The position numbers and the translations under genes are program-made. Under the pieces are notes generated by a model. The model searched no databases and had not been told where the DNA came from. It saw only the letters and a program-made list of their open reading frames with translations. Below, piece after piece: positions 24,633 through 49,797 of a DNA stretch of 64,000 nt. How positions within the stretch are numbered: the stretch's first letter is position 1; each line of letters begins with the position of its first letter. The stretch comes from Chitinophagaceae bacterium 26-R-25 (GTDB taxonomy: Bacteria > Bacteroidota > Bacteroidia > Chitinophagales > Chitinophagaceae): positions 1,178,001 to 1,242,000 of the forward strand of contig JARWSJ010000001.1 in the NCBI GenBank assembly GCA_029906195.1, in the 5' to 3' direction.

Positions 24633-24660
24633 AATTAATAATTAACAATTAATAATTAAG
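24633..24660. repeat. Heptamer array, single arm
   Basis: Four consecutive 7-bp units: AATTAAT, AATTAAC, AATTAAT, AATTAAG. The unit is the same as at 29671-29698. No inverted partner array is present. It fills most of the gap between nuoN and the small downstream gene. Confidence 0.85.
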
Positions 24661-24667
24661 AGCATCC

Positions 24668-26080
24668 TCACTGCATCTGTGCAATAAGCGAATAAATGTA
24701 GTCGTATATCGGGCTTGCTACACCTACTGTTACCACACCTGCAATGCAAACAACAAATGCCAGCTTTGACATAAGCGGTATCCTGATGGGTTGAAGAGGC
24801 GTTGGGTTTGCATCCATGAAAATTGCTTTTACTACCCGCAAATAATAATAAAGCGAAATGACAATATTTAGTGCAGCAATGCCTATCAAAAGATAATTTC
24901 CTTTGCCTGCACCAGCTATCAGCAAAAAGAATTTACCAAAAAATCCGGCGGTTGGTGGTACTCCGGCCAGCGAAAACAGACCAATGGCTAATACCCAGGA
25001 TAGAGTGCGATTGGTTTTGTAAAGTCCTTTATAATCGCTGATATTTTCTTTTCCCGTTACAGAGGAAACCAATGCCACTACACCAAATGCCGCAAGGTTG
25101 GAGAAAACATAAATCAAAACAAAATAGATAACCGATGCGGTTGAAACATCCGATCCTCCGGAAATACCAACCATTATGAAACCCACTTGGGCAATGGATG
25201 AAAAAGCAAGAAAGCGCTTGAAGTTTTCCTGCCGTATGGCAAACAAATTTCCTATTATTATAGTGAGCAGCGACAGGATAAACAACATGTTGTACCATAC
25301 TGTTGCAAGCGGACTGAATACTTTATACAATACTGATACGAAAACAAAAAGTACAGCTCCTTTTGATACCACTGATAGGAATGAAGTTACAGCTACCGGC
25401 GCTCCCTCATATACATCCGCTGTCCACAAGTGAAAGGGTACTACCGATATTTTAAAAGCAAATCCTGCAATGATCAATATAAAAGCAAATAACTGCAATG
25501 GGTTATTGCTTATGAGGTGCGGCAATTCAGAAAATATCAAAGTGCCAGTGGTTCCATACAATAAAGAAATACCAAACAGCAAACACCCTGATGAAAAAGC
25601 AGAAGAGAAAATCAATTTCATTGCCCCTTCGGACGAACGCCTTTTTGCCAAATCAAAATTGGCTGCCGCTGCCAATGGAATGGTAGACATTTCCAGGCCC
25701 AGGTAAAACATGAGCAGGTTGCCCGAAGAAATCATAAAGAACATGCCCAGCAGTGACGATAACAGCAGTATGTAAAACTCCGGTACATGCTTGTGCGTTT
25801 TGAGCCATGAGTAAGATTGCAGCGAAACAATCAACATCGCGAGGTTGAGAATGTTTTTTTCCAGTGCGATCAACTTACTGGTCCGGAACATTTCATTAAG
25901 CAATACGCCGTCTCGATTGCCTATGAAACCAAGGGTCAAATTCAGCAATAGCAGCACATTCATCGTGTTCATAAAACTCTCATTGCTTCTATCTCTGCCC
26001 AGTTTCATAAACAGTAGTATAAAAATCATGGCAATTACTGCCATTTCCTGTTTCATGAGTAATAAAAAATCAGTCCACAT
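24668..26080 (-). CDS. nuoN: NADH-quinone oxidoreductase-like subunit N
   Basis: 470 residues, about 14 membrane spans, an antiporter-like proton channel of complex I. The conserved core is clear: FYLGLEMSTIPLAA, FKISVVPFHLWTADVYEGAP (Lys and His in broken helices), and LAFSSIAQVGFIMVG. It is the terminal membrane subunit and closes the A-D,H-N gene order. It is separated from nuoM by 132 bp that hold a heptamer palindrome. Full family length, no degeneration. Confidence 0.95.
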   Translation of the reverse strand: MWTDFLLLMKQEMAVIAMIFILLFMKLGRDRSNESFMNTMNVLLLLNLTLGFIGNRDGVLLNEMFRTSKLIALEKNILNLAMLIVSLQSYSWLKTHKHVPEFYILLLSSLLGMFFMISSGNLLMFYLGLEMSTIPLAAAANFDLAKRRSSEGAMKLIFSSAFSSGCLLFGISLLYGTTGTLIFSELPHLISNNPLQLFAFILIIAGFAFKISVVPFHLWTADVYEGAPVAVTSFLSVVSKGAVLFVFVSVLYKVFSPLATVWYNMLFILSLLTIIIGNLFAIRQENFKRFLAFSSIAQVGFIMVGISGGSDVSTASVIYFVLIYVFSNLAAFGVVALVSSVTGKENISDYKGLYKTNRTLSWVLAIGLFSLAGVPPTAGFFGKFFLLIAGAGKGNYLLIGIAALNIVISLYYYLRVVKAIFMDANPTPLQPIRIPLMSKLAFVVCIAGVVTVGVASPIYDYIYSLIAQMQ

Positions 26081-26109
26081 TGTTTACCCGTTTAGGTTGT
26101 TAAGTTAAG

Positions 26110-26223
26110 TCAAAAGGAAAAAGTCAAAAATCAAAAGTCAAAACCTGCAATGCTTTCTTTTTTTAATATTGCTATCACAGCATTACGGGGGGGCATTCTT
26201 ACTTTTTACTTTTTACTTTTGAA
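26110..26223. repeat. Facing heptamer arrays between nuoM and nuoN
   Basis: Left arm (26110-26144): GTCAAAA, GGAAAAA, GTCAAAA, ATCAAAA, GTCAAAA. Right arm (26199-26223): partial unit then TTTTTAC, TTTTTAC, TTTTGAA. The right arm is roughly the reverse complement of the left. The right arm includes the last codons and stop of nuoM (TAA at 26213-26215). Confidence 0.85.
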
Positions 26224-27694
26224 TTGTTACTATGGTCAATACCTTATTCATAATAACATCTGTTGAAGGTGTTATCAGTTTTGTAATTAAAAAAGGAGCA
26301 AGGCCCATTATTACAATTCCTGTAATCAATACGCCGGCAGCCAGTTTTTCATTCCATGTCGCATCCGTCAATTGATTGTGAGTTACATGCAGAGGCCCCA
26401 TAATTGATTTGCCTGTCGCCCTTAAAATATACACTGCTGTCACTACAATAGAGGCACAGGCAAGAATGGTGGCGAAACGATACCAGCCGTCAGGGTTTTG
26501 CCAGGAACCCATGAACACCGTCATTTCAGCAACAAAGCCGCTAAAACCCGGAAGTCCCAATGAACATAAACCTGCAATTATAAACACAGTAGAAATAAAC
26601 GGTGTTACTTTCAGCAGGCCGCCTAACTGCGCTACTTGTCTTGTATGAGTACGGCTGTAAATCATGCCAATGGCGGCAAAGAAAAGAGCTGTCATCAAAC
26701 CATGCGATACCATTTGCAATACGGCGCCATTAACAGATGTTTTCGTTAGCATTCCAATACCAAGCAGCACAAAGCCGCAGTGGCTCACAGAAGAATAAGC
26801 ATTGATGTATTTTAAATCCGTTTGCATCATCGTCGCGAATGCTCCGTATATGATAGCAATGGTTGCCAACAAAATTATTATCCATGAATAGCTATGTGCC
26901 GCATCTGGCATTAAGTACGTGGCTACACGCAAACACCCATATCCGCCCAGCTTCATGGATATGCCTGCTAAAAACATAGAAGCAGCAGTTGGTGCGGATG
27001 AGTGACCATCTGGTACCCATGTATGAAATGGAAAGAGTGCCGTAAAAATGCCAAAGCCGATAAATGCAAATGGGAAAAATGTTTTTTGAACAACCAACGG
27101 AATTTGCATACCCGCAATTTGTACAATATCAAAAGTGTTTGTGTGGAAATAAATACCTGTCAGGCCTATAAATACCAAAGCTGAACCACCCATGAGCATT
27201 AATGCCAGCTTCATAGCACTGTACTCTTTTTTTCCACTACCCCAAATACCAATCAATAAAAACTTGGGAACAACTGCTACTTCGAGGAAGAAGAACATGG
27301 TAAAGAGATCGAGCGAAATGAAAAAGCCGTATGCTCCCGTGCTTAACAGCGCGAGCAAAAAGAAAAATTCTTTATTCAGCCTTTCCGTATTCCATGAAAC
27401 AAGTGTACCTGCGAGCACCACTAAAGCAGTAAGCATGATCATGGCAAGGGATATGCCATCCACGCCCACATGGTAATTGATATTGAGTGGCTTGAACCAC
27501 ATCACATTCGATTCGAACAGAAAATGGCCATCGCCCGATGCCTGTTGCTGGTAGGCTACCAGCAAAAAAATGACCGTTGCCAATTGCAACACAGCCCCTG
27601 CTAGCGATATCGTTCTCACTTGCTTTAATCCTTTGCAAAAAAGAATAGCAATCGCTGTGAGAAAAGGCACTACAATTAGAAGTGTTAAGTTCAT
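26213..27694 (-). CDS. nuoM: NADH-quinone oxidoreductase-like subunit M
   Basis: 493 residues, about 14 spans, second antiporter-like subunit. Recognised by LALLSTGAYGFFISLDLFTM with FFFLEVAVVPKFLLIGIWG, by FPFHTWVPDGHSSAPTAAS, and by YINAYSSVSHCGFVLLGIG. The conserved Glu in FLEVAVVP and Lys in TDLKYINAY are key channel residues. It starts 7 bp after nuoL. Its C-terminal codons IQK* fall within a heptamer array, so the final residues may be repeat-derived. Confidence 0.96.
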   Translation of the reverse strand: MNLTLLIVVPFLTAIAILFCKGLKQVRTISLAGAVLQLATVIFLLVAYQQQASGDGHFLFESNVMWFKPLNINYHVGVDGISLAMIMLTALVVLAGTLVSWNTERLNKEFFFLLALLSTGAYGFFISLDLFTMFFFLEVAVVPKFLLIGIWGSGKKEYSAMKLALMLMGGSALVFIGLTGIYFHTNTFDIVQIAGMQIPLVVQKTFFPFAFIGFGIFTALFPFHTWVPDGHSSAPTAASMFLAGISMKLGGYGCLRVATYLMPDAAHSYSWIIILLATIAIIYGAFATMMQTDLKYINAYSSVSHCGFVLLGIGMLTKTSVNGAVLQMVSHGLMTALFFAAIGMIYSRTHTRQVAQLGGLLKVTPFISTVFIIAGLCSLGLPGFSGFVAEMTVFMGSWQNPDGWYRFATILACASIVVTAVYILRATGKSIMGPLHVTHNQLTDATWNEKLAAGVLITGIVIMGLAPFLITKLITPSTDVIMNKVLTIVTIQK

Positions 27695-27701
27695 ATACTA
27701 A

Positions 27702-29633
27702 TTATTTCCAGAGATAAATAAATAAAACAGCCAACCCTGCAATACCTGAGAAAAAATACAAAGCATATGTTTGTACTTTGCCGGACTGCAACCCTTTGAT
27801 ATAACCTGAAACTGAACGGGTAGTTGCCGCCACGCCATTTACAAAAGCGTCAATAATGTTCTTGTCAATCCACGCTGCCGGACGACCAATTAAATTGAAA
27901 ATAACTTTTCGGGTGATGAAGAGATAAATTTCATCAACGTAAAATTTCTTTGTTGCTGCTTTGTAAAAGCTGCCGAAAGTGGCTGCCAGTTTATCCGCAG
28001 ACCCGTTTTCTTTTTTGTAAATGCGTGCGGCTGCAAATATGGCCAGCAACACAAGCACAATAGGCACAAGGGAAAACAATATGTCCATGTGTGTTTCCAA
28101 CGGAGCTCCATCAGTTGTAACCATTTTTGTAAAGGGCACAAAACCTGCACCGACAGAACAGATCATCAGAATAATCAAAGGGATCTTCATGGAAGTCGTT
28201 CCATCTGCATGATGGGTTTCATGCACGCTGGCTTCTTTTCGCCAGAAGATTGAAAAGTACAAACGGAACATATAGAACGCCGTAAGCATGGCAGTGAACA
28301 ATGCAATGACGTAAATAAGTTTATTGGAATGGAATGAAGCGGTAAGGATTTCTTCCTTGCTGAAGAATCCTGCAAATGGCGGAACACCAGCAATAGCAAG
28401 GCATGCAATCAAAAATGCAATATGCGTAACAGGCATAAGTTTGCGCAGCCCTCCCATATCTTTCAAATCGTTACTGTGCACAAAATGTATGATAACACCT
28501 GCACCCAGGAACAACAGTGATTTGAAGAATGCATGTGTGAAAAGGTGAAACAAGGATGCCGTATAGCCCAACCCATTTTCACCACCGTAACGCGATATAC
28601 CGAGTGCAAACATCATGTAACCGATTTGTGACATAGTAGAGTAGGCAAGTACTCTTTTGATATCGGTTTGCGTGCAGGCAATGATAGCGGCAATTAAAGC
28701 GGATATAGCACCTACCCATGTAACAATTTGCAATGCAGAAGCATCAATGGAGAAAACAGGAAACAATCTCGCAACGAGATAAACGCCTGCTACCACCATC
28801 GTAGCTGCGTGTATTAATGCAGATACAGGCGTTGGCCCTTCCATTGCATCGGGTAACCAGATGTGCAGCGGAAACATAGCGGACTTTCCGGCGCCTCCGA
28901 TGAACACAAGGCTCAGACCCCATGTAAGCATGGATATGCCAAGAAAAGATGCTGTTGTAATGTTTACATATTCGCCCGATTGTGTCGAAGTAAGTCTTTG
29001 AATGAGCGTATTAAAATCCAGGGTGCCGCCATAAAAACTAAGTACCAGGATGCCTATTGAAAATCCGAAGTCTGCAAAACGGGTAACAATAAATGCTTTT
29101 TTGGCGGCGGCAATTGCCGAAGGTTTGTTGTAATAAAAACCGATCAGCAGGAAGGAAGACACACCCACTAACTCCCAAAAAATATAGATCTGGAATATGT
29201 TGGATGAAAGTACAAGCCCGAGCATGGAGAATGTAAACAAAGAAAGATATGCATAGTAAGTTGCAAAACGCTCTTCTCCCTTCATGTACCCAAGGCTGAA
29301 TATGTGCACCATGAGCGATATAAAGCTTACCACCACTATCATCATCATTGATATGGGATCAACAATGGCGCCCATATCAATAGACATGGTGGGTGAAAAT
29401 GCCAGCCAGTTGTATTTGTACGCAACTATTTGCTGATACACTCCATTTACTTTTCCGTCTGTAAAAAAATACCGGCCGGCGACTAACACTGAAATTAGCG
29501 TAACAGCAAGCATGGAAATTGTACCGATAACTCCGGAAGCATTTTTTAAATACTTTTTTCCAAACAGGCCAAGTATTAAGAAACACGTTATTGGAAGTAG
29601 AAGGACCGGTAAAAGATATTCTTGATAATTCAT
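27702..29633 (-). CDS. nuoL: NADH-quinone oxidoreductase-like subunit L
   Basis: 643 residues. The antiporter core contains YIFWELVGVSSFLLIGFYYN, FPLHIWLPDAMEGPTPVSAL and KRVLAYSTMSQIGYMMFALG. The C-terminal part includes the long lateral helix region and a final span (FFSGIAGLAVLFIYLW). This distal subunit is expected in proton pumping. A 175-bp gap with an AATTAAT palindrome separates it from nuoK, whereas nuoM follows after 7 bp. Confidence 0.96.
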   Translation of the reverse strand: MNYQEYLLPVLLLPITCFLILGLFGKKYLKNASGVIGTISMLAVTLISVLVAGRYFFTDGKVNGVYQQIVAYKYNWLAFSPTMSIDMGAIVDPISMMMIVVVSFISLMVHIFSLGYMKGEERFATYYAYLSLFTFSMLGLVLSSNIFQIYIFWELVGVSSFLLIGFYYNKPSAIAAAKKAFIVTRFADFGFSIGILVLSFYGGTLDFNTLIQRLTSTQSGEYVNITTASFLGISMLTWGLSLVFIGGAGKSAMFPLHIWLPDAMEGPTPVSALIHAATMVVAGVYLVARLFPVFSIDASALQIVTWVGAISALIAAIIACTQTDIKRVLAYSTMSQIGYMMFALGISRYGGENGLGYTASLFHLFTHAFFKSLLFLGAGVIIHFVHSNDLKDMGGLRKLMPVTHIAFLIACLAIAGVPPFAGFFSKEEILTASFHSNKLIYVIALFTAMLTAFYMFRLYFSIFWRKEASVHETHHADGTTSMKIPLIILMICSVGAGFVPFTKMVTTDGAPLETHMDILFSLVPIVLVLLAIFAAARIYKKENGSADKLAATFGSFYKAATKKFYVDEIYLFITRKVIFNLIGRPAAWIDKNIIDAFVNGVAATTRSVSGYIKGLQSGKVQTYALYFFSGIAGLAVLFIYLWK

Positions 29634-29670
29634 GTTGAATATATTTCTGTTCAGTTATCGAATAGTTGGG

Positions 29671-29800
29671 AATTAATAATTAATAATTAATAATTAATTC
29701 CTGAGGCCTGTAATACTATCATTGCTCTCTGTTTAGCGGCCTAGAAAGTTTGTTACATTTTCTAATGACTGCAAGCCTTTTAATTATTAATTATTAATTG
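29671..29800. repeat. Facing heptamer arrays between nuoK and nuoL
   Basis: Left arm: four exact AATTAAT units (29671-29698). Right arm: TTAATTA, TTAATTA, TTAATTG (29780-29800), the reverse complement with a shifted frame. The loop of about 80 nt has its own dyad-like GAGGCC..GGCC sequence. Confidence 0.88.
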
Positions 29801-29808
29801 ACCTCGCG

Positions 29809-30123
29809 CTACCACTTCAGCTCCGTTGCATCATCTACATCAATCGATTTATGTGTCCTGTACAAATTAATGATGATGGCGATAGCCACCGCAGCTTCAG
29901 CTGCAGCAATCGTTACAATGAATATGGAGAAAAATATCCCGTCCATTTTTTGCGGAAACAGATACTTATTAAAAGCAACAAAGTTGATGTTCACGCTATT
30001 TAGGATCAATTCAATCGACATTAACATCGTGATCATATTGCGGCGCGTAAACAAGCCATACATTCCCGTAAAGAATAAGGCTGTGCTTACAAATAAAATA
30101 TGGGTGAGTGGTACAGTGCTCAT
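29809..30123 (-). CDS. nuoK: NADH-quinone oxidoreductase-like subunit K
   Basis: 104 residues with three spans. LMSIELILNSVNINFVAFN carries the conserved membrane glutamates of the E-channel, and TIAAAEAAVAIAIIINLYRT the second. Directly abuts nuoJ (TAA then ATG). Normal family length. Confidence 0.96.
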   Translation of the reverse strand: MSTVPLTHILFVSTALFFTGMYGLFTRRNMITMLMSIELILNSVNINFVAFNKYLFPQKMDGIFFSIFIVTIAAAEAAVAIAIIINLYRTHKSIDVDDATELKW

Positions 30124-30741
30124 TTAAACCTCCGTTGTGATTAATGGTTCGGAAATATTTTCAGTTACTTTTTCCTCCTCAGGTTCAGGACTACTTACAT
30201 TTTCCGGCTTGGTCCCGATCTTTTCCGCATGTTCCTGTGGTGGCTTGATCGCGATAACAATACAGCCAATCATTGCGGATAAGAGCAGCATACTGACTAC
30301 CTCAAAGGGCAGGATATATCCATGTTCTGTTGTGCTGAGCATTTGTGTACCTACATCGCTTACTGATGCATTGAAGTGTTGCGAACCTGTACTCTTAAAG
30401 CCATAATGATTAATGAGATTAAAAGAAAATGCCAGCCCGAAGAATGCTGCGAGCGCCGAGCCAATCGTTCGCCTTAGTAAGGCTTTGGGCATTTTGGTGC
30501 CCGCCTGCTGCGTCAGGAAAATGGAAAAGATGATTAAAACAACAATGCCGCCAACATATACAATGATTTGAATTGCGGCGATAAATTCTACCTGCATCCA
30601 AAAATAAAGTGCGGCAATGCCCACCAACGACAACAAAAGCCAGATGGCGGATCTGAAAATTTTTGATGATGTTACTGCCATCAAACCCATTGCGAGCGTA
30701 AAGGCTGAGATGGCGTAAAATATAATTGCTGAAGTGTCCAT
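30124..30741 (-). CDS. nuoJ: NADH-quinone oxidoreductase-like subunit J
   Basis: 205 residues with five spans. The conserved stretch is EFIAAIQIIVYVGGIVVLII, which forms the pi-bulge helix region near the quinone site and E-channel. The acidic C-terminal tail (PEPEEEKVTENIS) is longer than in E. coli. Its ATG overlaps the nuoI stop as TAATG, implying coupled translation. Confidence 0.95.
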   Translation of the reverse strand: MDTSAIIFYAISAFTLAMGLMAVTSSKIFRSAIWLLLSLVGIAALYFWMQVEFIAAIQIIVYVGGIVVLIIFSIFLTQQAGTKMPKALLRRTIGSALAAFFGLAFSFNLINHYGFKSTGSQHFNASVSDVGTQMLSTTEHGYILPFEVVSMLLLSAMIGCIVIAIKPPQEHAEKIGTKPENVSSPEPEEEKVTENISEPLITTEV

Positions 30742-31217
30742 TATTCAACTCCCTCCCTGATTTTTGAACCGGGTTTATTTAATTTTTTTGTCAACGTACT
30801 GCGGTCGTAAACACTATGCTCAAAGTTTTGTCCCATCTGTATAGCGCCGGTAGGACAAGCATCCACGCATAAGCCGCAGAGCGTACACATATCCAGGTGA
30901 TATACGAATGTGTCCAATGCTTTTTTCTTTTTGTTCTCCGGTGTCAGTTCAAATTTGGTGATCACCTTAATCGTAGCATTTGGACATGCAAGTTCGCAAG
31001 CTGTGCATCCGGTGCAGGCGTGCAGATTGTCTGCATCGTGCGGCATAATGACTTCACCACGGAACCGGTCGGCCATTTTAAGTGTATCACGATTGTCCGG
31101 ATATTGCTGTGTGATAACCGTTTTGGGCCTTACGAAATAATGCCCCGTAAGCCGCATGCCTGTCCACAGCGATTTTGTGGCCTTTGCGATTTCAGATATG
31201 TATTCTTTTATAAACAT
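30741..31217 (-). CDS. nuoI: NADH-quinone oxidoreductase-like subunit I (2 x [4Fe-4S])
   Basis: 158 residues. Two full cluster motifs: CTGCTACELACP (Cys 68, 71, 74, 78) and CTLCGLCVDACP (Cys 111, 114, 117, 121). These are the N6a and N6b clusters that carry electrons to N2 in NuoB. In complexes lacking NuoEFG this subunit is the likely docking partner for reduced ferredoxin. No unusual extension is seen, unlike archaeal or cyanobacterial versions with modified surface. Confidence 0.96.
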   Translation of the reverse strand: MFIKEYISEIAKATKSLWTGMRLTGHYFVRPKTVITQQYPDNRDTLKMADRFRGEVIMPHDADNLHACTGCTACELACPNATIKVITKFELTPENKKKKALDTFVYHLDMCTLCGLCVDACPTGAIQMGQNFEHSVYDRSTLTKKLNKPGSKIREGVE

Positions 31218-31257
31218 TCTTAGTGTTTAAATATTTTCAAAAAAGCAATCGATGCAT

Positions 31258-31351
31258 GTCAAAGTCAAAACGAAAAAAACAAAAGTCAAAAGGTGGTGGC
31301 GCTATCAGCGTAATATTTTTGAATTTTTACTTTTGAATTTTTACTTTCAAA
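31258..31351. repeat. Facing heptamer arrays between nuoH and nuoI
   Basis: Left arm (31258-31291): GTCAAA, GTCAAAA, CGAAAAA, AACAAAA, GTCAAAA. Right arm (31317-31351): TTTTGAA, TTTTTAC, TTTTGAA, TTTTTAC, TTTCAAA. The loop is 25 nt and holds GGTGGTGGCGCTATCAGCG. The same unit occurs between nuoM and nuoN. The nuoH stop codon (31347-31349) lies inside the right arm. Confidence 0.88.
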
Positions 31352-32423: not shown

Positions 32424-32427
32424 AGAA

Positions 32428-32577
32428 GTTGTGAGTTATGAGTTTTGTGTTATGAGTTGATAGTTGTTAGTTGATAGTTGTTAGGCATTAGAGTGAATCT
32501 TTGCCGCTTAAGTCGAACAACTAACAACTATCAACTAACAACTAATTCCTGATTTCTAATTTCTAATTCCTGACATC
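32428..32577. repeat. Long facing heptamer arrays between nuoD and nuoH
   Basis: Left arm (32428-32483): eight in-register units GTTGTGA, GTTATGA, GTTTTGT, GTTATGA, GTTGATA, GTTGTTA, GTTGATA, GTTGTTA. Right arm (32515-32577): GAACAAC, TAACAAC, TATCAAC, TAACAAC, TAATTCC, TGATTTC, TAATTTC, TAATTCC, TGACATC. The inner parts of the arms are perfect reverse complements. The array runs from near the nuoH start to the last base before the nuoD stop, so the gap is almost pure repeat. Confidence 0.9.
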
Positions 32578-33699: not shown

Positions 33700-33736
33700 A
33701 TGGCTCGTGTGTATCCCGCTTGCGGGAATGAAGCTT

Positions 33737-35090: not shown

Positions 35091-35103
35091 TTTTTTGTTT
35101 TTA

Positions 35104-35201
35104 GTTGAGAGTTGAGAATGGAGAGTTGAGAGTTATGCTTTTTGTTTTTGAGTTGTTATGCGCAACTCTCAACTCTCAACTCTCAACTTTCAATTCTCAA
35201 C
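35104..35201. repeat. Facing heptamer arrays between korB and nuoA
   Basis: Left arm (35104-35138): GTTGAGA, GTTGAGA, ATGGAGA, GTTGAGA, GTTATGC. Right arm (35167-35201): TCTCAAC, TCTCAAC, TCTCAAC, TTTCAAT, TCTCAAC. The arms are reverse complements of a unit (GTTGAGA / TCTCAAC) used nowhere else in the window; the loop is 28 nt. Confidence 0.9.
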
Positions 35202-35204
35202 TAC

Positions 35205-42324: not shown

Positions 42325-42344
42325 AATCATACACATAACAGTAA

Positions 42345-42378: not shown

Positions 42379-42396
42379 ATATTGCGTCGCTTATTG

Positions 42397-42786: not shown

Positions 42787-42857
42787 AACGGAAGTTTTAA
42801 ATGCACAACTAAAAGTAAACGTTTTATGGTTGTTGATGTGTTGTTTACAAGAGAGAT

Positions 42858-45362
42858 TCAGCCTTTGTGCCATCGTTTCCATAGTTTAAAAATTTCAAAC
42901 CAAAGAACAGATACAGCGGCAATACCGAAGGATTCAAACAACTCCATAAGCGTCAATCTTCTTATTTTAAAAAAATGGGATACAGGTTCCACATAAAGAA
43001 TGACAGCTAACAGAAGAATGATTAGAATTGTCATACCAACTAAAAGGAAATTGCGATTTTTAAAACTTTCGAAGATGCTAAAGAAGAACGATCTGTTGGT
43101 GAAACTTAAAAGTATGTTGGCAAAGATCAAAGTGCAAAAGACCATTCCTCTTGTCTTTTCTTCAGAGCCGCCGTTCTGTACAGCGAGTTGGTAAGCAAAC
43201 AATACACCTGCGGTAATAACTATTCCTTGTATTATACTAAGGGATAGTTCTCGCCAATTCAAGAACGTATCGGTCATGGCCCTTGGAGGCTGCCGCATGG
43301 TATGCTTTTCCATAGGTTCGTTTTCATATACAATTGAACAGGTCGGGCCCATCACCAGTTCGAGAAATATAACATGCACGGGCGTAAAAATATGAGGGTA
43401 TATCCAGCTAAAAAACAATGGCAGTGACACGGTTAGAATAATCGGGATGTGGATGGCAATGATATACTGAACAGCCTTTTTAATATTAGCATAAATCCTT
43501 CTTCCGGCGGCAATGCCGGTAATCAGTTTTTCAAGATCATCATTTGTAATCACCAGCGATGATGCAGCCTTTGCAATTTCAGTTCCTTTATTTCCCATAG
43601 CCACACCGATGTTCGCTGCTTTAAGCGCCGGGCCGTCGTTTACGCCATCGCCGAGTACCGCGACTATTTCGCCCTTTTGTTTTAGCGCCTCCACTACAGC
43701 AAGCTTTGCTTCAGGAAACATCCGTGTAAAGAGTGCCGTGCGTTCCGCCGCATCCATCAGCTCCTGTTTGGAATAATTCATAATGTCGTTCCCTGTCAAA
43801 ATTTGTGAGGCGTTGGTGATGCCTGCCTGCGTTGCAATGCTGCCGGTAGTTTCTGCGTTGTCGCCGGTTATCACCTTCACTTTAATACCAGCATCGTAGA
43901 TGTGTCTGAACACATCCTTAATGACTTTTTTGGGTGGATCATAAAATACAGTTAACCCTAAAAAAATAAATGTAAAATCCTGTTGTTTTTCGGGAAATTC
44001 GTTGCCCTCAAAATGTGATTTGGCAACCCCCAAAACTCTGTAGCCCTGCCGGCCAAATGTTGTTACGTATGTTCTTATTTTTTCCTTTTCCTGTTCGGAT
44101 AAGTCAGACACTTGCAACATTGCTTCCGGGGCCCCTTTTGCTGCTATGATCCTGTTTTTGTGCTTGTTCTCAAAAAGATGGGTCATCATCGGCGGCCTGC
44201 CGTCGAGAGGGTATTCATGAAACAAATGAAACTCCTTTCTGCGATCATCTGTGTGCGTTTGTTCATATACGTTATGAATTGTTTTTTCCATCGGATCAAA
44301 AGGGACGGGCTCGCTGCTCCACATGGCATAGCTGATAAGTTCTGCCAGCTGATTGTCGCCAAATTCATTTTCCTCATAAGTCTTGTCTGTCCTGAAATCA
44401 TACAGCAATTTTAGTTGCATGGAATTCTCCGTTATGGTGCCGGTTTTATCAGTGCAGATAACAGTGGTACTTCCCAATGTTTCTACAAAGCTGCTTTGCT
44501 TAACAATGATGCCTTCTTTCATCAACCGCCAGGCACCCAACGCCATAAAGGTGGTAAGTGCAACAGGAATTTCCTCAGGAAGGATCGACATGGCAAGCGT
44601 GAGGCCATTGAGCAGACTCTCGATAAAATTCTTGGTATGGAGATAGTTAACGGCACATACAGCTACAACCACTACAACGCCGACGATTGCCATTGTCTTT
44701 ACAAATTTTGTGACCTGTAATTGTAGCGGGGAGCGTTCTTCAACGATGGTGAGGATCGATTCTCCGATCTTGCCTATCCTGGTTTCCATGCCAATTTTAT
44801 GCACTTCAAAAACAGCCAGACCTGATACCGCTAAAGTTCCGCTATACACTTTGTTGTCTTCTGTTTGTTTATCCTTAAATACAGAAAAGCTTTCACCCGT
44901 GAGAGAAGCCTCGTTAACCGAAAAGTCGTGACTGTACACAATCTGCCCGTCTGCATTAATCATTTTTCCTTCTTCCGTAATACACAGATCGCCTACGACA
45001 ATTTCGTGTGTTGGTAAATCAATGACCTGTCCGTCGCGAATAACTTTACTAAGCGGTTCATTAAGTTTCTCCAATGCTTCCAATGCTTTTTTGCTTCGGT
45101 TGTCCTGGTAAAAAGAAATCGCGGAGACCGCCACAATCGATACGAACATAAATGCAGCTTCCCCATAATCACCCACCATGACATAGATAAAGGAGATGAC
45201 AATGAGCAGGATGAGCATCGGCTCTTTAAGAATATCAACCAGCAGTTCGAACCAACTGTTTTTGTGAACTGCATCCATTCTGTTGTAACCAAACTTTTTT
45301 CTTGATAAGGTCACCTCGTTTTGTGTAAGCCCTCTTAAATGGCCGGGAATATTATTGGACAT
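42858..45362 (-). CDS. P-type cation-transporting ATPase (P2-like)
   Basis: 834 residues, full length. Actuator loop NEASLTGESFSV (about 150), the M4 motif ILPEEIPVALTTFMA, the phosphorylated Asp in CTDKTGTITEN (about 305), and the hinge AVLGDGVNDGPALKAANIG (about 570). The overall form, with an N-terminal cation-ATPase domain and ten spans, fits the Ca2+/Mg2+/heavy-ion P2 group rather than CPx heavy-metal pumps; no CPC motif and no metal-binding N-terminal domain are seen. The transported ion is not certain; PEEIP in place of PEGLP is a variation in the ion site. It lies within a stress island, much as CtpF does in the DosR regulon. Confidence 0.9.
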   Translation of the reverse strand: MSNNIPGHLRGLTQNEVTLSRKKFGYNRMDAVHKNSWFELLVDILKEPMLILLIVISFIYVMVGDYGEAAFMFVSIVAVSAISFYQDNRSKKALEALEKLNEPLSKVIRDGQVIDLPTHEIVVGDLCITEEGKMINADGQIVYSHDFSVNEASLTGESFSVFKDKQTEDNKVYSGTLAVSGLAVFEVHKIGMETRIGKIGESILTIVEERSPLQLQVTKFVKTMAIVGVVVVVAVCAVNYLHTKNFIESLLNGLTLAMSILPEEIPVALTTFMALGAWRLMKEGIIVKQSSFVETLGSTTVICTDKTGTITENSMQLKLLYDFRTDKTYEENEFGDNQLAELISYAMWSSEPVPFDPMEKTIHNVYEQTHTDDRRKEFHLFHEYPLDGRPPMMTHLFENKHKNRIIAAKGAPEAMLQVSDLSEQEKEKIRTYVTTFGRQGYRVLGVAKSHFEGNEFPEKQQDFTFIFLGLTVFYDPPKKVIKDVFRHIYDAGIKVKVITGDNAETTGSIATQAGITNASQILTGNDIMNYSKQELMDAAERTALFTRMFPEAKLAVVEALKQKGEIVAVLGDGVNDGPALKAANIGVAMGNKGTEIAKAASSLVITNDDLEKLITGIAAGRRIYANIKKAVQYIIAIHIPIILTVSLPLFFSWIYPHIFTPVHVIFLELVMGPTCSIVYENEPMEKHTMRQPPRAMTDTFLNWRELSLSIIQGIVITAGVLFAYQLAVQNGGSEEKTRGMVFCTLIFANILLSFTNRSFFFSIFESFKNRNFLLVGMTILIILLLAVILYVEPVSHFFKIRRLTLMELFESFGIAAVSVLWFEIFKLWKRWHKG

Positions 45363-45527
45363 ATCGTTGTATGATCAGCATAGTTAAACCTGGACGTCTT
45401 TCACTAATGTATGGATTTGCAATAAGAACTGCAACTCCTGACTGTTATACCGCAAATTTCAGGACATAGCGTAGTCGTTTATTTTTCATAAATGGGGGAC
45501 GGTGCCAGGTTAATAAAGATGATCACC

Positions 45528-46361
45528 CTAGTAATTTTTTTTGGACATATCACAGTCGTACGCTATTTCGAGAGAATCACATTCAATGTTAAACAACACA
45601 GGTCTGTAGCCACTGTATTTCGGCCGAATATACTTTGTCGGTAGTCCATATGCGTTATATCTTACTATTTCCGGGAACATGGAGCTAAAGAAGAAGTTAT
45701 CTGTTGCATTGTTCACGCTGTAATTCCGGTTCACAAGTTGCCACATGGAATTAGTAAGATATGGGTTGATCTGTTCGTCATATACCGGGGGAAGAATTGG
45801 CGATTCAAAAACAAGATTTCCGTCTTTATTATACTTGTAGTAGACGGTATCTATAAACATGTTGGTGGTCGGAGTGACTGATAGCGGAATGAATCTAATC
45901 TCCCTGGAAACTCTTCCATGTGCGTCACTATTTAGGACTGCCCATTTTTTATCCCATGCATCATATGGAGGATGTGGATCTGTTATGTATCCTGCATAAT
46001 AATAGCTCGTGTCCATAATTTTGTCGGGAAAATAGATATATGAATCCCATCCTACAACGCCTGTATTGCCAACGTAAACAAAGAGCCGGTCAGTAAGCCT
46101 GTTTTTTTTATCGTAACGGAAATAGAAATTCTCGCGTCCGGCTGAAGAATATTTATCTGTAAGCATGCTTGTTACATTGCCGTTTTTGTCGTAGGAAATG
46201 TTGTAAATGGCGCTGTTGCCGCCAATATAGAATGTAAGTTGTGCTATCCGGCAAATGTTTTGTACCGCTTTTGGATTGGCAATGTATACGTCATACATTT
46301 TTTTACAGCCTGTCATGCTCAACACCATTGTCGCGAGCAGATAAAAGGATGTTTTTTTCAT
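45528..46361 (-). CDS. Lipoprotein with YD-like repeats
   Basis: 277 residues. A signal peptide with lipobox MTGC (about residue 19) is followed by KK. The body has irregular beta-hairpin repeats of the RHS/YD type (ISYDKNGNVTSMLTD, FRYDKKNRLTDRL, YKYNKDGNLVFES), and it ends with LEIAYDCDM. It is a paralogue of the lipoprotein at 56348-57163, which has the same lipobox, repeats, a DPHPPYD / DQHPPYN motif, and an IEYDC end. Function unknown. The two copies bracket the stress island. Confidence 0.8.
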   Translation of the reverse strand: MKKTSFYLLATMVLSMTGCKKMYDVYIANPKAVQNICRIAQLTFYIGGNSAIYNISYDKNGNVTSMLTDKYSSAGRENFYFRYDKKNRLTDRLFVYVGNTGVVGWDSYIYFPDKIMDTSYYYAGYITDPHPPYDAWDKKWAVLNSDAHGRVSREIRFIPLSVTPTTNMFIDTVYYKYNKDGNLVFESPILPPVYDEQINPYLTNSMWQLVNRNYSVNNATDNFFFSSMFPEIVRYNAYGLPTKYIRPKYSGYRPVLFNIECDSLEIAYDCDMSKKNY

Positions 46362-46499
46362 CGCAAAAAATTTAATGATGAATAAAAAATAAGACGAAGG
46401 GAACGCGGATTGGTGTCTTCTATTGGTAGGAATTTGTTAAATGCAACAGGGTTTGTTTCTATGAATCATTCGAAATAAGGAGACTTAATGGAAGCAACG

Positions 46500-47012
46500 T
46501 TAGCCTTTAACGGAAATTAGCGTATCATTTATCAGTGAAGCAAGTTCTTCCTTTTTTACTCCAATTAAATCTTCATTCAGCGCCTTTCTTTTTTCCGGAT
46601 CCCTTTGCACGCCGGCTACAAGTTTTAAAATCAGTTTGTCTCTAAAAGAAAGCCTTTGATGGATGACCTGCCCGGGTAAAAAGTAAAATTGGCAATAGGG
46701 TTTTAGTTCTGCAGGTACATTCTGTTCGATAAACCTGGCGCAAATTTCCTTGTCTTGTGACCCTGTAGCACTCACTATAAAAAAGAATAACTTTTTATGC
46801 AGGAGATATCTGACGTTGTGAACAAGCCATGCTTTTAATTTAAAAGTGCCGAAATATACAGGCGTTCCCAATAGAATAAAATCATATTTGCTTAGCTCTT
46901 CTTCTGTAATATCTGTAGAAGGCTTTACTGTGAGTTGTAGCATTTCTCCGAGCCATTCTGCGTACTGCTGTGTTGCGCCGTATTTGGAAGTATAAATAAT
47001 AAGTCCGGGCAT
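46500..47012 (-). CDS. Flavodoxin-fold protein, HemG-like
   Basis: 170 residues. The phosphate-binding loop IIYTSKYGATQQYAEWL is at the N-terminus, and ILLGTPVYFGTFK follows. This fits the flavodoxin domain of menaquinone-dependent protoporphyrinogen IX dehydrogenase (HemG) and related electron carriers. Either a haem-biosynthesis enzyme or a redox carrier working with PFOR is possible; the C-terminal 60 residues with VAGVQRDPEKRKALNED lack a clear HemG extension. A candidate operator and a palindrome lie 60 bp upstream. Confidence 0.75.
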   Translation of the reverse strand: MPGLIIYTSKYGATQQYAEWLGEMLQLTVKPSTDITEEELSKYDFILLGTPVYFGTFKLKAWLVHNVRYLLHKKLFFFIVSATGSQDKEICARFIEQNVPAELKPYCQFYFLPGQVIHQRLSFRDKLILKLVAGVQRDPEKRKALNEDLIGVKKEELASLINDTLISVKG

Positions 47013-47066
47013 GATTATTTATTTTTTTTCTACCATGAATATAATTAAAGCCTATTCGCAATGCTG

Positions 47067-47078
47067 TGATAACTGTCA
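47067..47078. promoter_or_regulatory. Candidate Crp/Fnr-type operator, flavodoxin-usp intergenic
   Basis: TGATAACTGTCA matches TGAT-N3-TGTCA exactly. The left half is TGTGA when extended by two bases, as in Crp sites. It lies 54 bp before the flavodoxin-like gene and 187 bp before the universal stress gene on the other strand. Confidence 0.55.
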
Positions 47079-47091
47079 TCGCATTCGATGA
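47076..47091. promoter_or_regulatory. 16-bp perfect palindrome
   Basis: TCATCG-N4-CGATGA overlaps the end of the candidate Crp/Fnr site. Six-base half sites with a four-base centre suit a second dimeric regulator. Confidence 0.35.
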
Positions 47092-47264
47092 TTCATTTCA
47101 TTGCAAAGAAATCAGAGAGCACGTCCCAGTGTCGTAAATATCACCGCTCTACATCTTACTGTTTCACCAATCAGTATTTCAATATGTCAATCATCGTAAG
47201 CAATAACCGTTATCATCGTTTTCGCTTGTGTAGTGATATAGTTTTAGAGTATTAATTTTTTTTT

Positions 47265-48104
47265 ATGGAAAATATTCTGCTAGTAATAGATGGTGCAAGA
47301 ATGGACAGAGCGATGGTAGATTTCTCCTGTTATTTGGCGAAGCTAACCAGATCACGTCTCAGAGCTTTATTTATGGAGCATCTTAGTATAGAAGGCGAGT
47401 CCGAAAAGTTCGAGATTTTCGGGAGTGTAAGCAGCACGATGGTATTGCCGCGGGAACTTCACGAAAAACAAAAGATACTCCAGGTTTGTGAGTCGAACGA
47501 AAAGCTATTTGCTGAAACATGCATCAGTAATGGCATTGATTTTAGCATAAGAAGCCAGTATCATAACTGGATCGAATTGCTCGTGGAGGAAACCAGGTTT
47601 GCCGATGTAATGGTTATCAATCCGCAAACTTCTTTTTCTGATAAGGTAGCCAATATACCATCAAATTTTGCAAAGCAGGTACTTGAAAAAGCCGAGTGTC
47701 CTGTAATTATAGCGCCTGGTAGTTTTGAGGGAGTTGATCAATTGCTTTTTGCCTACGATGGAAGCAAATCCTGTGTATTTGCTATCAAGCAGTTTGCTCA
47801 CACATTTCCGCAATTAACGGGGCTGCCGGTGACCTTATTGCAAATTGGAACGGCTGAGGACGCTTTTGCCAACGATTCCGAAAAAGTTAATGAACTGCTG
47901 GATGCTCATTTTCCAAATCACCATTTCGAATTGCTGGAAGGAAGTCCGTCCAATGAACTCTTTGGGTACCTGTTGGGCAAACGAAATGTGTTCATAGTAA
48001 TGGGGGCTTATGGAAGAAATAATATTTCGAGGTTTTTCAGGCAAAGCACTGCAGACCTGGTCATGAAAACAATCAATCTTCCTTTTTTTATTAGTCATGC
48101 TTAA
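47265..48104 (+). CDS. Tandem-domain universal stress protein
   Basis: 279 residues with two UspA-like domains. The first begins NILLVIDGARMDRAMVDFSC and ends with VIIAPGSFEG; the second begins LLFAYDGSKSCVFAIK and ends VIMGAYGRN-type (IVMGAYGRNNISRFF). The GxGxxG-type ATP-binding pattern is only partly preserved, so nucleotide binding is uncertain. It is followed after 11 bp by a related gene on the same strand. Usp proteins promote survival of stress and growth arrest. Confidence 0.9.
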   Translation: MENILLVIDGARMDRAMVDFSCYLAKLTRSRLRALFMEHLSIEGESEKFEIFGSVSSTMVLPRELHEKQKILQVCESNEKLFAETCISNGIDFSIRSQYHNWIELLVEETRFADVMVINPQTSFSDKVANIPSNFAKQVLEKAECPVIIAPGSFEGVDQLLFAYDGSKSCVFAIKQFAHTFPQLTGLPVTLLQIGTAEDAFANDSEKVNELLDAHFPNHHFELLEGSPSNELFGYLLGKRNVFIVMGAYGRNNISRFFRQSTADLVMKTINLPFFISHA

Positions 48105-48115
48105 AAAGCGATGTT

Positions 48116-48955
48116 ATGAAAAAGATTATTGTAGCAATTGATGGGCTTAAGTTTTCACACAGTACCACCAATTATGCTATTCACCTGGCAAAGCAAACTT
48201 ACGCACATGTAGTGGGCGTTTTCCTGGATGATTTTTCTTATCACAGTTACAGGGTTTATGAACTGGCAAACGTGCCGGTTGACGAGCTGCAGGAAAAAAT
48301 AGATTATCTAGGTGAAAGGGATGCGCGCAAAAGAGAGGCTGCAGCAGAGGAATTTAGAGAAGCCTGCAATAGCGCTAATCTTCCCTGCACTATCCACCAT
48401 AGTAAAAATTTTGCGCTGAACGAACTGCTTCATGAAAGTGTATATGCAGATCTGCTGATCATTAACAGGAAAGAAACTTTCTCTCATTTTGATGACTCGA
48501 TACCCTCCACGTTTATTAAAGATCTCATGGCAGGTGTTCAATGTCCGGTGTTGGTCGTGCCTAACTCATTTAAAAAAATAGAGGAAATAATGTTGTTGTA
48601 TGATGGCAAACCATCTTCTGTTTATGCGATAAAAATGTTTGGTTACATCTTTCCACTGTTAAACAAACTGGATACCGAGGTGTTATTTGTAAATGAAGAG
48701 AGTCCGATGTATTTGCCGGATAACAAGCTGGTGAAAGAGTTTATCAGGCTTCACATTCCGAATGCTACCTACACTGTTTTAAAAGGTGCTCCGCAAGACG
48801 AGATTATTAGGTACTGCAAAGAGCGTACGAAGAACAAAATGATAGTGTTAGGTGCGTACAGCCGCGGAACAGTTTCCCGCTGGTTCCAGCACAGCATGGC
48901 AGATGCTTTAATGCAGCAGTTGGATAACCCTTTGTTTATTGCACATAATAAATGA
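48116..48955 (+). CDS. Tandem-domain universal stress protein
   Basis: 279 residues, the same length and layout as the preceding protein: KIIVAIDGLKFSHSTTNYAI start, mid-protein VLVVPNSFKK, second domain MLLYDGKPSSVYAIKM, and IVLGAYSRGTVSRWFQHS end. The pair is a tandem duplication. Both are expected to be cytoplasmic. The gene ends at a bidirectional terminator shared with hsp20. Confidence 0.9.
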   Translation: MKKIIVAIDGLKFSHSTTNYAIHLAKQTYAHVVGVFLDDFSYHSYRVYELANVPVDELQEKIDYLGERDARKREAAAEEFREACNSANLPCTIHHSKNFALNELLHESVYADLLIINRKETFSHFDDSIPSTFIKDLMAGVQCPVLVVPNSFKKIEEIMLLYDGKPSSVYAIKMFGYIFPLLNKLDTEVLFVNEESPMYLPDNKLVKEFIRLHIPNATYTVLKGAPQDEIIRYCKERTKNKMIVLGAYSRGTVSRWFQHSMADALMQQLDNPLFIAHNK

Positions 48956-49001
48956 CTTTTTAGTGTTTTTCTGTTTCTTTTTTCGATTGGTGTATTTAGA
49001 A

Positions 49002-49030
49002 AAAAGCTCCGGTGAATTTCCGGAGCTTTT
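49002..49030. terminator. Bidirectional terminator between usp and hsp20
   Basis: AAAAGCTCCGG and CCGGAGCTTTT form a perfect 11-bp stem around 7 nt, with A-rich and T-rich flanks, between two convergent genes. Confidence 0.85.
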
Positions 49031-49072
49031 CAATGTAAGATAGGACGAAGGTTTAAGGTAGGATGAAGGTTG

Positions 49073-49516
49073 TTATCCGATGGTAATGTTCTTTATATTA
49101 GCCTTCGGCTTCTTTCCGTTTCTGGGTACATCAATTTTCAGTTCTCCATTCTTGTATTCGGCTTCAATTTTTTCATCGTCTGCATCTTCAGGCAAAGAGA
49201 AGGAGCGGGTCCAACTTGTGTAATTGTATTCCCTTCGGTTATATTTTCCGTCCTTTTCCAGTTTTTCTTCTTTTTCTGCACTAACAGTAATCATTCCATC
49301 TTGTATCTGAACATGGAAATCATTTTTCTCAAGGCCAGGTGCTGCGATAGAAATGGCGTAGGTTGTTTCCGTTTCATTAACGTTAACAGCCGGCACATTC
49401 AGCACATAATCGCGGTTGAAATATTTGTCGAGCGGAGCATTAAAGAAAGTGTCGAACCAGTCTGTGTTGTCAAACAATGATGGCCATTTTGATTTGGTAA
49501 TAGCTTGTGTTTCCAT
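49073..49516 (-). CDS. Small heat-shock protein (Hsp20)
   Basis: 147 residues. Alpha-crystallin domain: VNVNETETTYAISIAAPGLE, FHVQIQDGMITVSAEKEE, RREYNYTSWTRSFSLPEDAD, and EYKNGELKIDVPRN. Both the A-x-x-x-G-L-type terminus and the short C-terminal tail are present. An ATP-independent holdase. Adjacent divergent hsp20-like gene at 49919. Confidence 0.95.
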   Translation of the reverse strand: METQAITKSKWPSLFDNTDWFDTFFNAPLDKYFNRDYVLNVPAVNVNETETTYAISIAAPGLEKNDFHVQIQDGMITVSAEKEEKLEKDGKYNRREYNYTSWTRSFSLPEDADDEKIEAEYKNGELKIDVPRNGKKPKANIKNITIG

Positions 49517-49683
49517 AATCTTGTTTTTTTAAGTTAAAAAAATCTGTCGTCATAAGAGACGGATCAAAGTCTATTTATTATTTCTTTGGAGAAGATTGTT
49601 GGGCACATTGAAATGGCGATTTTTTTTCTTACAAAATAGTGCTGAGACAAGTGGTGGTAAATAACGGTGAGCATTGTTTGCGT

Positions 49684-49695
49684 TGATAGATATCA
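49684..49695. promoter_or_regulatory. Candidate Fnr-type operator between the hsp20 genes
   Basis: TGATAGATATCA, preceded by T, matches TTGAT-N4-ATCA of the Fnr box with one deviation at the last base. It fits TGAY-N4-RTCA and lies 168 bp upstream of the minus-strand hsp20. Confidence 0.4.
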
Positions 49696-49702
49696 TCGGG
49701 AA

Positions 49703-49797
49703 GCGTAAGGCGTAACGCAAAACGCATAACGCATGGTACAGGTATTCACGACTGTTGCATTCACAGTGCGTAATGCGTTTTGCGTTAAGCTTTAAGC
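49703..49797. repeat. Facing heptamer arrays between the hsp20 genes
   Basis: Left arm (49703-49734): GCGTAAG, GCGTAAC, GCAAAAC, GCATAAC, GCAT. Right arm (49770-49797): GTAATGC, GTTTTGC, GTTAAGC, TTTAAGC. The arms are reverse complements of a GC-containing unit used only here. This is the sole locus of the family in the window outside the kor-nuo operon. Confidence 0.88.

What the first reader, a model, noticed from the sequence alone, without database searches (positions are those of the whole stretch)
24633..49797. A family of intergenic heptamer arrays, mostly facing inverted pairs, that fill the kor-nuo operon gaps
Seven loci carry tandem units with an exact 7-bp period (24633, 26110, 29671, 31258, 32428, 35104, 49703). 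Six lie within or at the end of one operon. Six of the seven are two arrays in inverted orientation around loops of about 25-80 nt. Each locus has its own unit (GTTGAGA, GTTGATA/GTTGTTA, AATTAAT, GTCAAAA, GCGTAAC), yet both arms of a locus share that unit. Arms must therefore evolve together, for example by hairpin-templated repair or inverted duplication. Two arrays run into gene ends and set the stop codons of nuoM and nuoH. Heptamer short tandem repeats (STRR) are known in cyanobacteria, but paired inverted, locus-specific heptamers are not something I know from Bacteroidota.
Basis: seen in the sequence. Interest (0 to 1): 0.82.

Follow-up and report, generated by a model that had tools for sequence, protein, structure and literature searches.

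The report
Heptamer-armed hairpins at gene ends
A soil bacterium related to Pinibacter carries many short hairpin-forming DNA elements built from tandem 7-, 8- or 9-base repeats that often start almost exactly at gene stop codons, and a related species sometimes holds a differently built hairpin in the same slot.

Summary
In detail: all seven loci carry period-7 arrays and six are inverted pairs. They are not a kor-nuo peculiarity. In 1.26 Mb of contig 1, intergenic arrays number 161 (period 7), 50 (period 8) and 5 (period 9), against 0 for periods 2-6, 10, 11 and 13 and 1 for period 12. Units are not locus-specific; they belong to a small vocabulary of dispersed families, two of which align as ~90-105 bp elements (28 and 18 copies).

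Main new fact: register to stop codons. The outer array edge lies a median 2 bp from a stop (108 of 194 within -10..+5), against 74.5 bp on start sides (10 of 160).

Of 117 array-bearing gaps orthologous with Pinibacter soli, 74 hold arrays in both species. In 22 of the 74 the unit differs, in 7 the period too. Eight slots were read in full.

Best reading: dispersed, REP-like 3'-end hairpins that turn over as cassettes. Mobility is inferred, function untested, and the RAYT link inconclusive. Close precedents: Xanthomonas GGGAATC heptamers (inverted pairs at stops) and Nostoc trnL P6b stems.

The parts
24633..24659 (.). single AATTAAT-type arm between nuoN stop and the next gene; 8 bp from the nuoN stop
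   Evidence: P. soli has an AATTAGG array in the same slot; no significant fold
26107..26143 (.). AAAAGTM arm, nuoM-nuoN gap
26195..26231 (.). inverted AAAAGTM arm that covers the nuoM stop codon (TAA)
   Evidence: hairpin z -4.06
29671..29698 (.). AATTAAT arm, nuoK-nuoL gap
29780..29799 (.). inverted AATTAAT arm, 9 bp from the nuoK stop (TAG)
   Evidence: hairpin z -3.70; same unit in P. soli, none seen in DXS
31258..31291 (.). degenerate AAAAGTC arm, nuoH-nuoI gap (not called by TRF)
31317..31347 (.). inverted arm (14-bp super-unit TTTTGAATTTTTAC) touching the nuoH stop (TGA)
   Evidence: hairpin not significant, z -1.03
32427..32484 (.). AGTTGWT / AGTTATG arm, nuoD-nuoH gap
   Evidence: 84 matches at about 40 places in G000, a lower bound because 40 of 164 candidates were scored
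32516..32568 (.). inverted AGTTGWT arm plus AATTAGA units, 9 bp from the nuoD stop (TGA)
   Evidence: hairpin z -6.26
35103..35134 (.). AGTTGAG arm, korB-nuoA gap
   Evidence: 113 matches in G000, most of single arms
35163..35202 (.). inverted AGTTGAG arm, 2 bp from the korB stop (TAA)
   Evidence: hairpin z -9.01
49701..49735 (.). AACGCRT-type arm between two divergent hsp20 genes
49766..49791 (.). inverted partner of 49701-49735
   Evidence: by eye; hairpin z -4.48

Best explanation
The loci are members of several families of short, dispersed, hairpin-forming elements, mostly about 80-250 bp. Each element is two inverted arms, typically four or five tandem copies of a 7-, 8- or 9-base unit, around a core. 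Shown: they are intergenic, hug gene stop codons, are scarcer in divergent gaps, fold into long A+T-rich stems, and in some slots hold a different family in a related species. Inferred: they spread as non-autonomous elements or by copying of one element over another, and settle or survive just behind stop codons because the hairpin is harmless or useful there. Once transcribed they would act like REP/BIME hairpins: a 3' barrier that protects the upstream message, or a slowdown at the stop, and in a gene row such as kor-nuo they would tune neighbouring genes rather than terminate transcription. The 7-9 base period would come from how the arms grow (slippage), and the shared unit of two arms from copying of whole elements. 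Which enzyme copies them is not known.
For: Abundance and period: 161/50/5 intergenic arrays of periods 7/8/9 against none for periods 2-6, 10, 11 and 13 and one for 12 in 1.262 Mb; 62/18/1 in 800 kb of P. soli. Pairing: 98 of 132 adjacent array pairs in one gap are inverted with >=6/7 unit identity. Stop register: median 2 bp, 108 of 194 within -10..+5, against 10 of 160 on start sides; P. soli 46 of 102 against 10 of 80. Gap class: arrays in 96 of 307 tandem, 34 of 88 convergent and 12 of 75 divergent gaps of 80-400 bp. Folding: 57 of 58 pairs z < -2, median 85% of the left arm paired with the right (the 58 are those up to 260 bp among the first 60 of 100 pairs). Dispersed elements: 28 AGTTGTT-type and 18 AGTTGAG-type copies from two genomes align end to end (one of the 18, L240, is of the related AATTGAA type); AGTTGTT cores are related (mean score 0.082, maximum of 100 shuffles -0.056). 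Slots: 200 orthologous gaps with P. soli, 74 with arrays in both, 38 only here, 5 only there, 83 in neither; of the 74, 10 have unrelated units (7 of them also another period) and 12 merely similar ones. Eight such slots read in full: in six both arms differ between species as matched pairs, in two the P. soli element has arms of two families; the stop is at the same position in seven and two codons earlier in P. soli in one. A short slot next to a stop: C1:970858, 250 bp here and 77 bp in P. soli.
Against: No transposition event, target duplication or enzyme was shown. Over all families, cores are mostly unrelated between loci (5 hits, one of them a neighbouring duplicate, in 4950 pairs), which a simple transposed element would not predict. 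Stop hugging is weak or absent in the DXS sample (3 of 11 against 2 of 9), and G111 has arrays in 4 of 6 divergent gaps of a 60 kb sample. Two of the seven window loci do not fold significantly, and the hsp20 locus is in a divergent gap. Arrays only in this genome (38) outnumber those only in P. soli (5), partly because the P. soli copies are degraded below threshold. No expression data exist, so every statement on RNA function is inference. No terminator-like site was found in the array gaps on the operon strand, but that scan cannot see loops over 8 nt.
Confidence: 0.5

Rival explanations
1. Ordinary neutral simple-sequence repeats: replication slippage with a heptamer bias makes arrays in each gap, and hairpin-templated switching copies one arm into the other.
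For: A heptamer excess and a slippage hypothesis are published (PMC4692102 discussion). Arms share sub-variants within a locus beyond family level in AATTAxx (0 of 500 shuffles reach it) and AGTTGxx (p 0.006). Most cores are unrelated.
Against: The same units recur at very many places. Position-specific unit variants are shared between loci (second unit AGTTGAT in 15 of 24 parsed left arms, though the 20 parsed right arms are less clear; CTCCATTCTC in 11 of 18 AGTTGAG-type right arms). AGTTGTT cores are related. Variants are not mirrored between arms. It does not predict register to stop codons or period changes at one slot.
Confidence: 0.15
2. They are REPINs moved by REP-associated tyrosine transposases (RAYTs).
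For: The genome has one intact RAYT (NCBIfam NF047646, 106.8 bits). A 9-base-period inverted element lies about 75 bp past its stop. In G111 and P. soli a second RAYT type is followed at its stop by an 8-base AATTTGAA-type inverted pair.
Against: By eye, the RAYT-A flanks carry other, G+C-richer palindromes on both sides, better candidates for its cognate REP; the arrays lie on the 3' side only, where any gene has a good chance of one. Of 18 RAYT-like loci (8 checked with NCBIfam, 7 over its cut-off), 3 had a called array within 500 bp and a fourth (L297) a related inverted repeat; of 20 IS200-like loci, 2 had an array. None of the 18 had a 7-base array within 500 bp. RAYT-like genes occur in relatives nearly without AATTAGG arrays; their other arrays were not counted.
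Confidence: 0.2
3. The arms exist to provide stop codons in all three frames behind the gene (a heptamer or octamer shifts the frame at each copy).
For: Read into the element, 144 of 200 arms close all three frames, against 66 of 200 read outwards. The stop lies in or at the array in many genes; TAG is 43 of 106 abutting stops against 244 of 919 overall.
Against: Composition explains most of it: 31 of 36 distinct units hold a stop, against 26.7 expected from shuffled units (p 0.043). The Xanthomonas GGGAATC repeat has no stop codon in any frame (read from the unit), and a 9-base unit does not shift the frame.
Confidence: 0.05
4. They are conserved operon signals (attenuators or terminators) selected at each site.
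For: Slots are shared between species (74 both, 38 and 5 single, 83 neither), and arrays are scarcer in divergent gaps.
Against: The same gaps in Flavihumibacter measure -9 to 59 nt and its 21 kb locus has no lag array at score >=14; DXS shows none by eye at nuoK-L. Sequence, unit and period change at a slot.
Confidence: 0.1

Closest known systems
GGGAATC / GGGGAYT heptamer repeats of Xanthomonas and Nostoc (PMC4692102; passages and sections 13 and 16 read)
   Same: Intergenic heptamer arrays; 70 and 75 inverted pairs in two Xanthomonas; G-rich strand on the coding strand within 0-50 bp of the stop, some overlapping it; few in divergent gaps; same genes in two species with much length and sequence variation.
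   Different: One G-rich unit type is described there. Here at least eight unit families with periods 7, 8 and 9, mostly A+T-rich, sit side by side in one genome, and unit and period can differ between species at one slot.
Nostoc trnL intron P6b stem (PMC4476775; passages read)
   Same: A stem built from paired heptamers, with two unit classes that replace one another while the structure stays.
   Different: One site inside a group I intron; here many intergenic sites.
REPIN / REP-BIME (PMC3116915 and PMC12306157; passages read)
   Same: Dispersed extragenic inverted pairs forming hairpins, some close to stop codons.
   Different: REPs are short imperfect palindromes tied to a RAYT; here arms are tandem arrays and the RAYT link is inconclusive.
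TAACTGA direct repeats in Beggiatoaceae, Cyanobacteria and five Bacteroidetes (PMC4679880; abstract and section 10 read)
   Same: Intergenic heptamer arrays, also in Bacteroidetes; the octamer family here contains TAACTGA at 8-base spacing.
   Different: Mostly direct repeats just upstream of start codons in the main species; here inverted pairs at stops.
Cyanobacterial STRR (recalled; a search listing and one passage)
   Same: Heptanucleotide tandem repeats.
   Different: Inverted pairing and stop register were not described in what I saw.

Membership tests
Xanthomonas-type intergenic heptamer arrays | tandem heptamers, intergenic | tested here: met
   161 of 169 period-7 arrays are mostly intergenic
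Xanthomonas-type intergenic heptamer arrays | inverted pairs, purine-rich strand first, near the stop, few in divergent gaps | tested here: met
   90 of 104 inverted pairs have the purine-richer arm first; of the 14 others five are 9-base, five AGTTGTT-type, one AACGC-type and three neighbouring arms of different elements; stop register; divergent 12 of 75
Xanthomonas-type intergenic heptamer arrays | G-quadruplex-capable GGGAATC-type unit | tested here: not met
   no unit consensus listed has three G in a row
REPIN | two inverted copies around a spacer, dispersed, extragenic | tested here: met
REPIN | each copy an imperfect palindrome with the GTAG or CGTC tag (tag recalled, and from the title and abstract start of PMC3733652 in a listing) | tested here: not met
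   arms are tandem units; no such tag seen by eye in the consensus of two aligned families; other families not aligned
REPIN | cognate RAYT flanked by the same repeat | tested here: inconclusive
   9- and 8-base elements on the 3' side only, for two RAYT types
MITE | target-site duplication and conserved internal sequence among copies | tested here: inconclusive
   cores related in the AGTTGTT family, mostly unrelated over all pairs; no duplication seen by eye in the few short slots
intrinsic terminator | short G+C stem followed by a T run | tested here: not met
   one search lists none in the array gaps on the operon strand (one at 31299 on the other strand); long A+T stems are outside that scan
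Rfam RNA families | match at the gathering score | tested here: not met
   0 matches in window 24000-50000

The most novel reading that the evidence does not exclude
Chitinophagaceae of this genus carry a set of stop-codon-registered hairpin cassettes in which both arms, the core and even the repeat period (7, 8 or 9) are exchanged as one unit at a fixed slot. That implies a copying process guided by structure and position (the stop codon or 3' end) rather than by sequence, and not yet tied to any known enzyme.
Probability: 0.3. Interest if true: 0.8.

Novelty: new variant of a known kind. Interest (0 to 1): 0.6.

Why it matters
Why bacterial genomes favour 7-base repeats is an old open question. 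Here one genome offers several unit families of period 7, 8 and 9 at comparable sites, with close species for before-and-after comparison, so slippage, element copying and selection for a 3' hairpin can be told apart. If the cassettes move, they form a large population of small elements that reshape message ends even among the complex I genes.

Tried and rejected
Locus-specific units: rejected, units recur genome-wide. Stop-codon supply as the reason for the units: weak once composition is allowed for. Mirrored copying between arms: no sign, but locus-level sharing of sub-variants remains in two families. One conserved core for all families: rejected (5 hits in 4950 core pairs), though an inner motif with GTGY six bases past the array is enriched (17 seen, about 1 expected) and AGTTGTT cores are related. 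Mobilisation by the RAYT: looked promising at first, then inconclusive because the RAYT has other flanking palindromes and the arrays lie only on its 3' side. My first parse of AGTTGTT cores caught array sequence; one search replaces it. An earlier count said 114 of 194 within -10..+5; the table gives 108 (114 only when six deeper overlaps are added). The gene calls are my own six-frame hexamer scoring, not an annotation. In 'same', 'similar' and 'different' rest on the best match between any two called arms, so a slot with one called arm counts too. Period counts for L172 and L182 include runs of N and were not used. L185 duplicates L169.

Literature searches for a prior description of inverted heptamer or octamer arrays in Bacteroidota gave me only the papers named here as relevant, judged from listings; subscription papers are not held.
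Full report
WHAT IS THERE. The window is C1:1178001-1242000 of a 6.51 Mb genome. The nearest named relatives by KorB are Pinibacter soli (95% amino-acid identity) and Chitinophagaceae bacterium DXS (94%). A genus member in the family sample, G011, shares RAYT coordinates with the P. soli record G001, so P. soli is of the window's own genus. All seven period-7 loci are real. Six are inverted pairs around loops of about 25-81 nt; 24633 is a single arm. Six lie in or at the end of the kor-nuo gene row (Pfam hits of the complex I families and of the KorA-type protein; the gene letters are recalled from those families, and korB itself was not put to Pfam). The seventh lies between two divergent hsp20 genes. 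As RNA, five of seven fold better than shuffles (z -3.7 to -9.0); 31258 (z -1.03) and the single arm (z -0.72) do not.

GENOME-WIDE. I read C1:1-1262000 (19% of the genome) with my own gene calls (919 genes, 87% coding). Intergenic lag arrays with score >=14 number 161 for period 7, 50 for period 8, 5 for period 9, 1 for period 12, and 0 for periods 2-6, 10, 11 and 13. Five order-2 Markov simulations of the intergenic DNA gave none for periods 7 and 8. P. soli (800 kb) gives 62, 18 and 1 for periods 7, 8 and 9, and one each for periods 4, 5 and 10. Density is uneven: of 86 gaps of 80-400 bp in the bins from C1:240 to 540 kb only 3 hold an array, against 142 of 470 classified gaps in the whole stretch.

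FAMILIES, NOT LOCUS-SPECIFIC UNITS. The arrays fall into a few vocabularies: AATTAAT/AATTAAG/AATTAGG, AATTGAA/AGTTGAA, AGTTGTT/AGTTGAT/AGTTGAG, AAAAGTC/AAAAGTA, AACGCYT, an octamer ACTGAATA, an octamer AATTTGAA, a nonamer GATTTTCAT, and rarer ones. AATTAGG arrays (up to 1 mismatch, both strands) give 475, 245 and 117 hits in the three genus members sampled and at most 10 in each of the other 144 genomes. Another AATTAAK pattern gave 224 hits in P. soli and 0 in DXS. Other genera have heptamers of their own: DXS, and several of 79 loci of Bacteroidota and others at the kor genes (22 arrays of period 7-9 at score >=12, 7 of them within 7 bp of a stop by simple ORF calls). Several family genomes showed none in a single 20 kb sample. 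Two families were aligned over 28 and 18 copies from this genome and a congener (28 of 36 and 18 of 42 fetched loci passed the filter for length and duplicates; L240 among the 18 is AATTGAA-type). AGTTGTT copies mostly have four-unit arms, with AGTTGAT as second unit in 15 of 24 parsed left arms (the 20 parsed right arms are less clear), and related cores (mean pair score 0.082, maximum of 100 shuffles -0.056). Over all families cores are mostly unrelated (5 hits in 4950 pairs), but a motif of the type ATGCTTTAGGTGC sits just inside the arms (GTGY at offset 6: 17 seen, about 1 expected).

PAIRING. Of 132 neighbouring array pairs in one gap, 98 are inverted with >=6/7 unit identity (7 of these also match directly), 3 match directly only, and 13 differ in period. 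Arm sharing is 82% among same-period pairs, 24% when shuffled, at most 38%. Of 104 inverted pairs (>=5/7), 90 have the purine-richer arm first. Variants are not mirrored between arms. Within AATTAxx and AGTTGxx, arms of one locus are more alike than arms of other loci (0 of 500 shuffles and p 0.006). The 9-base and AAAGTNA families show no such effect; the other three give p 0.03-0.06 on shared words and none on the consensus unit.

REGISTER TO STOP CODONS. The outermost array edge (score >=12) lies a median 2 bp from the stop on stop sides (108 of 194 within -10..+5) and a median 74.5 bp on start sides (10 of 160). P. soli: 46 of 102 (median 8) against 10 of 80 (median 45); congener G111, 60 kb: 8 of 14 against 2 of 14; DXS, 101 kb, shows no clear bias, 3 of 11 against 2 of 9. 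In the six operon loci the stop-side distances are 8, -19, 9, -1, 9 and 2 bp and the start-side ones 12, 26, 37, 40, 3 and 12 bp, so here both sides are near. Arrays occur in 96 of 307 tandem, 34 of 88 convergent and 12 of 75 divergent gaps of 80-400 bp. P. soli agrees (55 of 208, 16 of 52, 7 of 49); the small G111 sample does not (4 of 6 divergent). TAG is commoner among abutting stops (43 of 106) than overall (244 of 919).

SLOTS AND CASSETTE EXCHANGE. Of 719 gaps tested, 200 had both flanks in the P. soli stretches: arrays in both 74, only here 38, only there 5, neither 83. 'Only here' includes degraded arrays in P. soli. Of the 74, 52 share a unit, 12 have a similar one and 10 an unrelated one, 7 of these 10 with another period. 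Eight slots were read in full. Matched pairs of different units in both species: C1:958426 (AACGCYT here, TGAGTGA there), C1:795113 and C1:992286 (AACGCYT, period 7, here; ACTGAATA, period 8, there), C1:986867 (AGTTGTT here, AAAAAGT there), C1:1082196 (AATTAGG here, AATTAAT there) and C1:1052413 (AATTGAA arm plus AGTTGTT pair here, AAAAGTA pair there, with the DNA downstream conserved). At C1:731089 and C1:718100 the P. soli element has arms of two different families; at C1:718100 the two species differ by a 199-bp indel and this genome has a solo arm. The stop stands at the same position in seven of the eight and two codons earlier in P. soli at C1:958426. A short slot exists at C1:970858 (250 against 77 bp). 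In the kor-nuo row, Flavihumibacter has gaps of -9 to 59 nt and no lag array at score >=14 in 21 kb, against 47-175 bp in the array-bearing gaps here. DXS shows by eye a differently built, AAAGTAA-like pair in the nuoD-nuoH gap and none at nuoK-L.

HOW IT MAY WORK. Shown: structure, place, families, slot-wise difference between species. Inferred: copying of whole elements, and a REP-like role at message ends. REPs within 15 nt of a stop are reported to stall ribosomes (PMC12306157, passages read). If kor-nuo is one transcript, which I did not test, the elements in it cannot be full terminators. The copying enzyme is open. One RAYT is present here (NCBIfam 106.8 bits); a 9-base element lies past its 3' end, and in two congeners an 8-base element stands at the stop of a second RAYT type, but other palindromes flank RAYT-A on both sides. 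I call this inconclusive.

KNOWN OR NEW. Xanthomonas GGGAATC arrays match in inverted pairing, strand, stop proximity, scarcity in divergent gaps, and variable sequence at shared sites (PMC4692102). Nostoc P6b stems show two heptamer classes replacing one another (PMC4476775). What I did not find in print is many unit families of period 7, 8 and 9 side by side in one genome, registered to stops to within a few bases, and differing as whole cassettes between species at one slot. Hence a new variant of a known kind.

Noticed in passing
G000 C1:240000-540000 and C1:1140000-1200000 (outside or next to the window): Few arrays although gaps of 80-400 bp are present (3 of 86 and 1 of 22); a 12 kb sample (L023) matches P. 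soli at only 68-77% over its three main hits, which suggests younger or faster-changing DNA.
   Followed up: partly
window about 61930-62076, and many loci of contig 1: Another dispersed inverted repeat (GTCATCCCGAsGAAsGAGGGATCTG type) unrelated to the heptamers; it also lies in the core of two array elements (C1:467503, C1:485291).
   Followed up: no
L190 1029-1152 and 1228-1791 (G000 C1 near 2.605 Mb): The only intact RAYT gene found in this genome, with palindromes on both flanks and a 9-base-period inverted element past its 3' end.
   Followed up: partly
P. soli slots opposite C1:972782, C1:838240 and C1:970303: Same slots filled by quite different inverted repeats (types with GATGACGCTGATT or ACCGCAAAGG, GATGACACTGATT, and CACTAAGG).
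   Followed up: no
G000 C1:579589-579708: An unusually long AGTTGAG arm of about 120 bp (score 101) with a normal partner arm.
   Followed up: no
L076 (a Bacteroidota MAG): A 160-bp period-8 array (ATCAACCA/ATCAACTT) 6 bp from a stop in the kor region.
   Followed up: no
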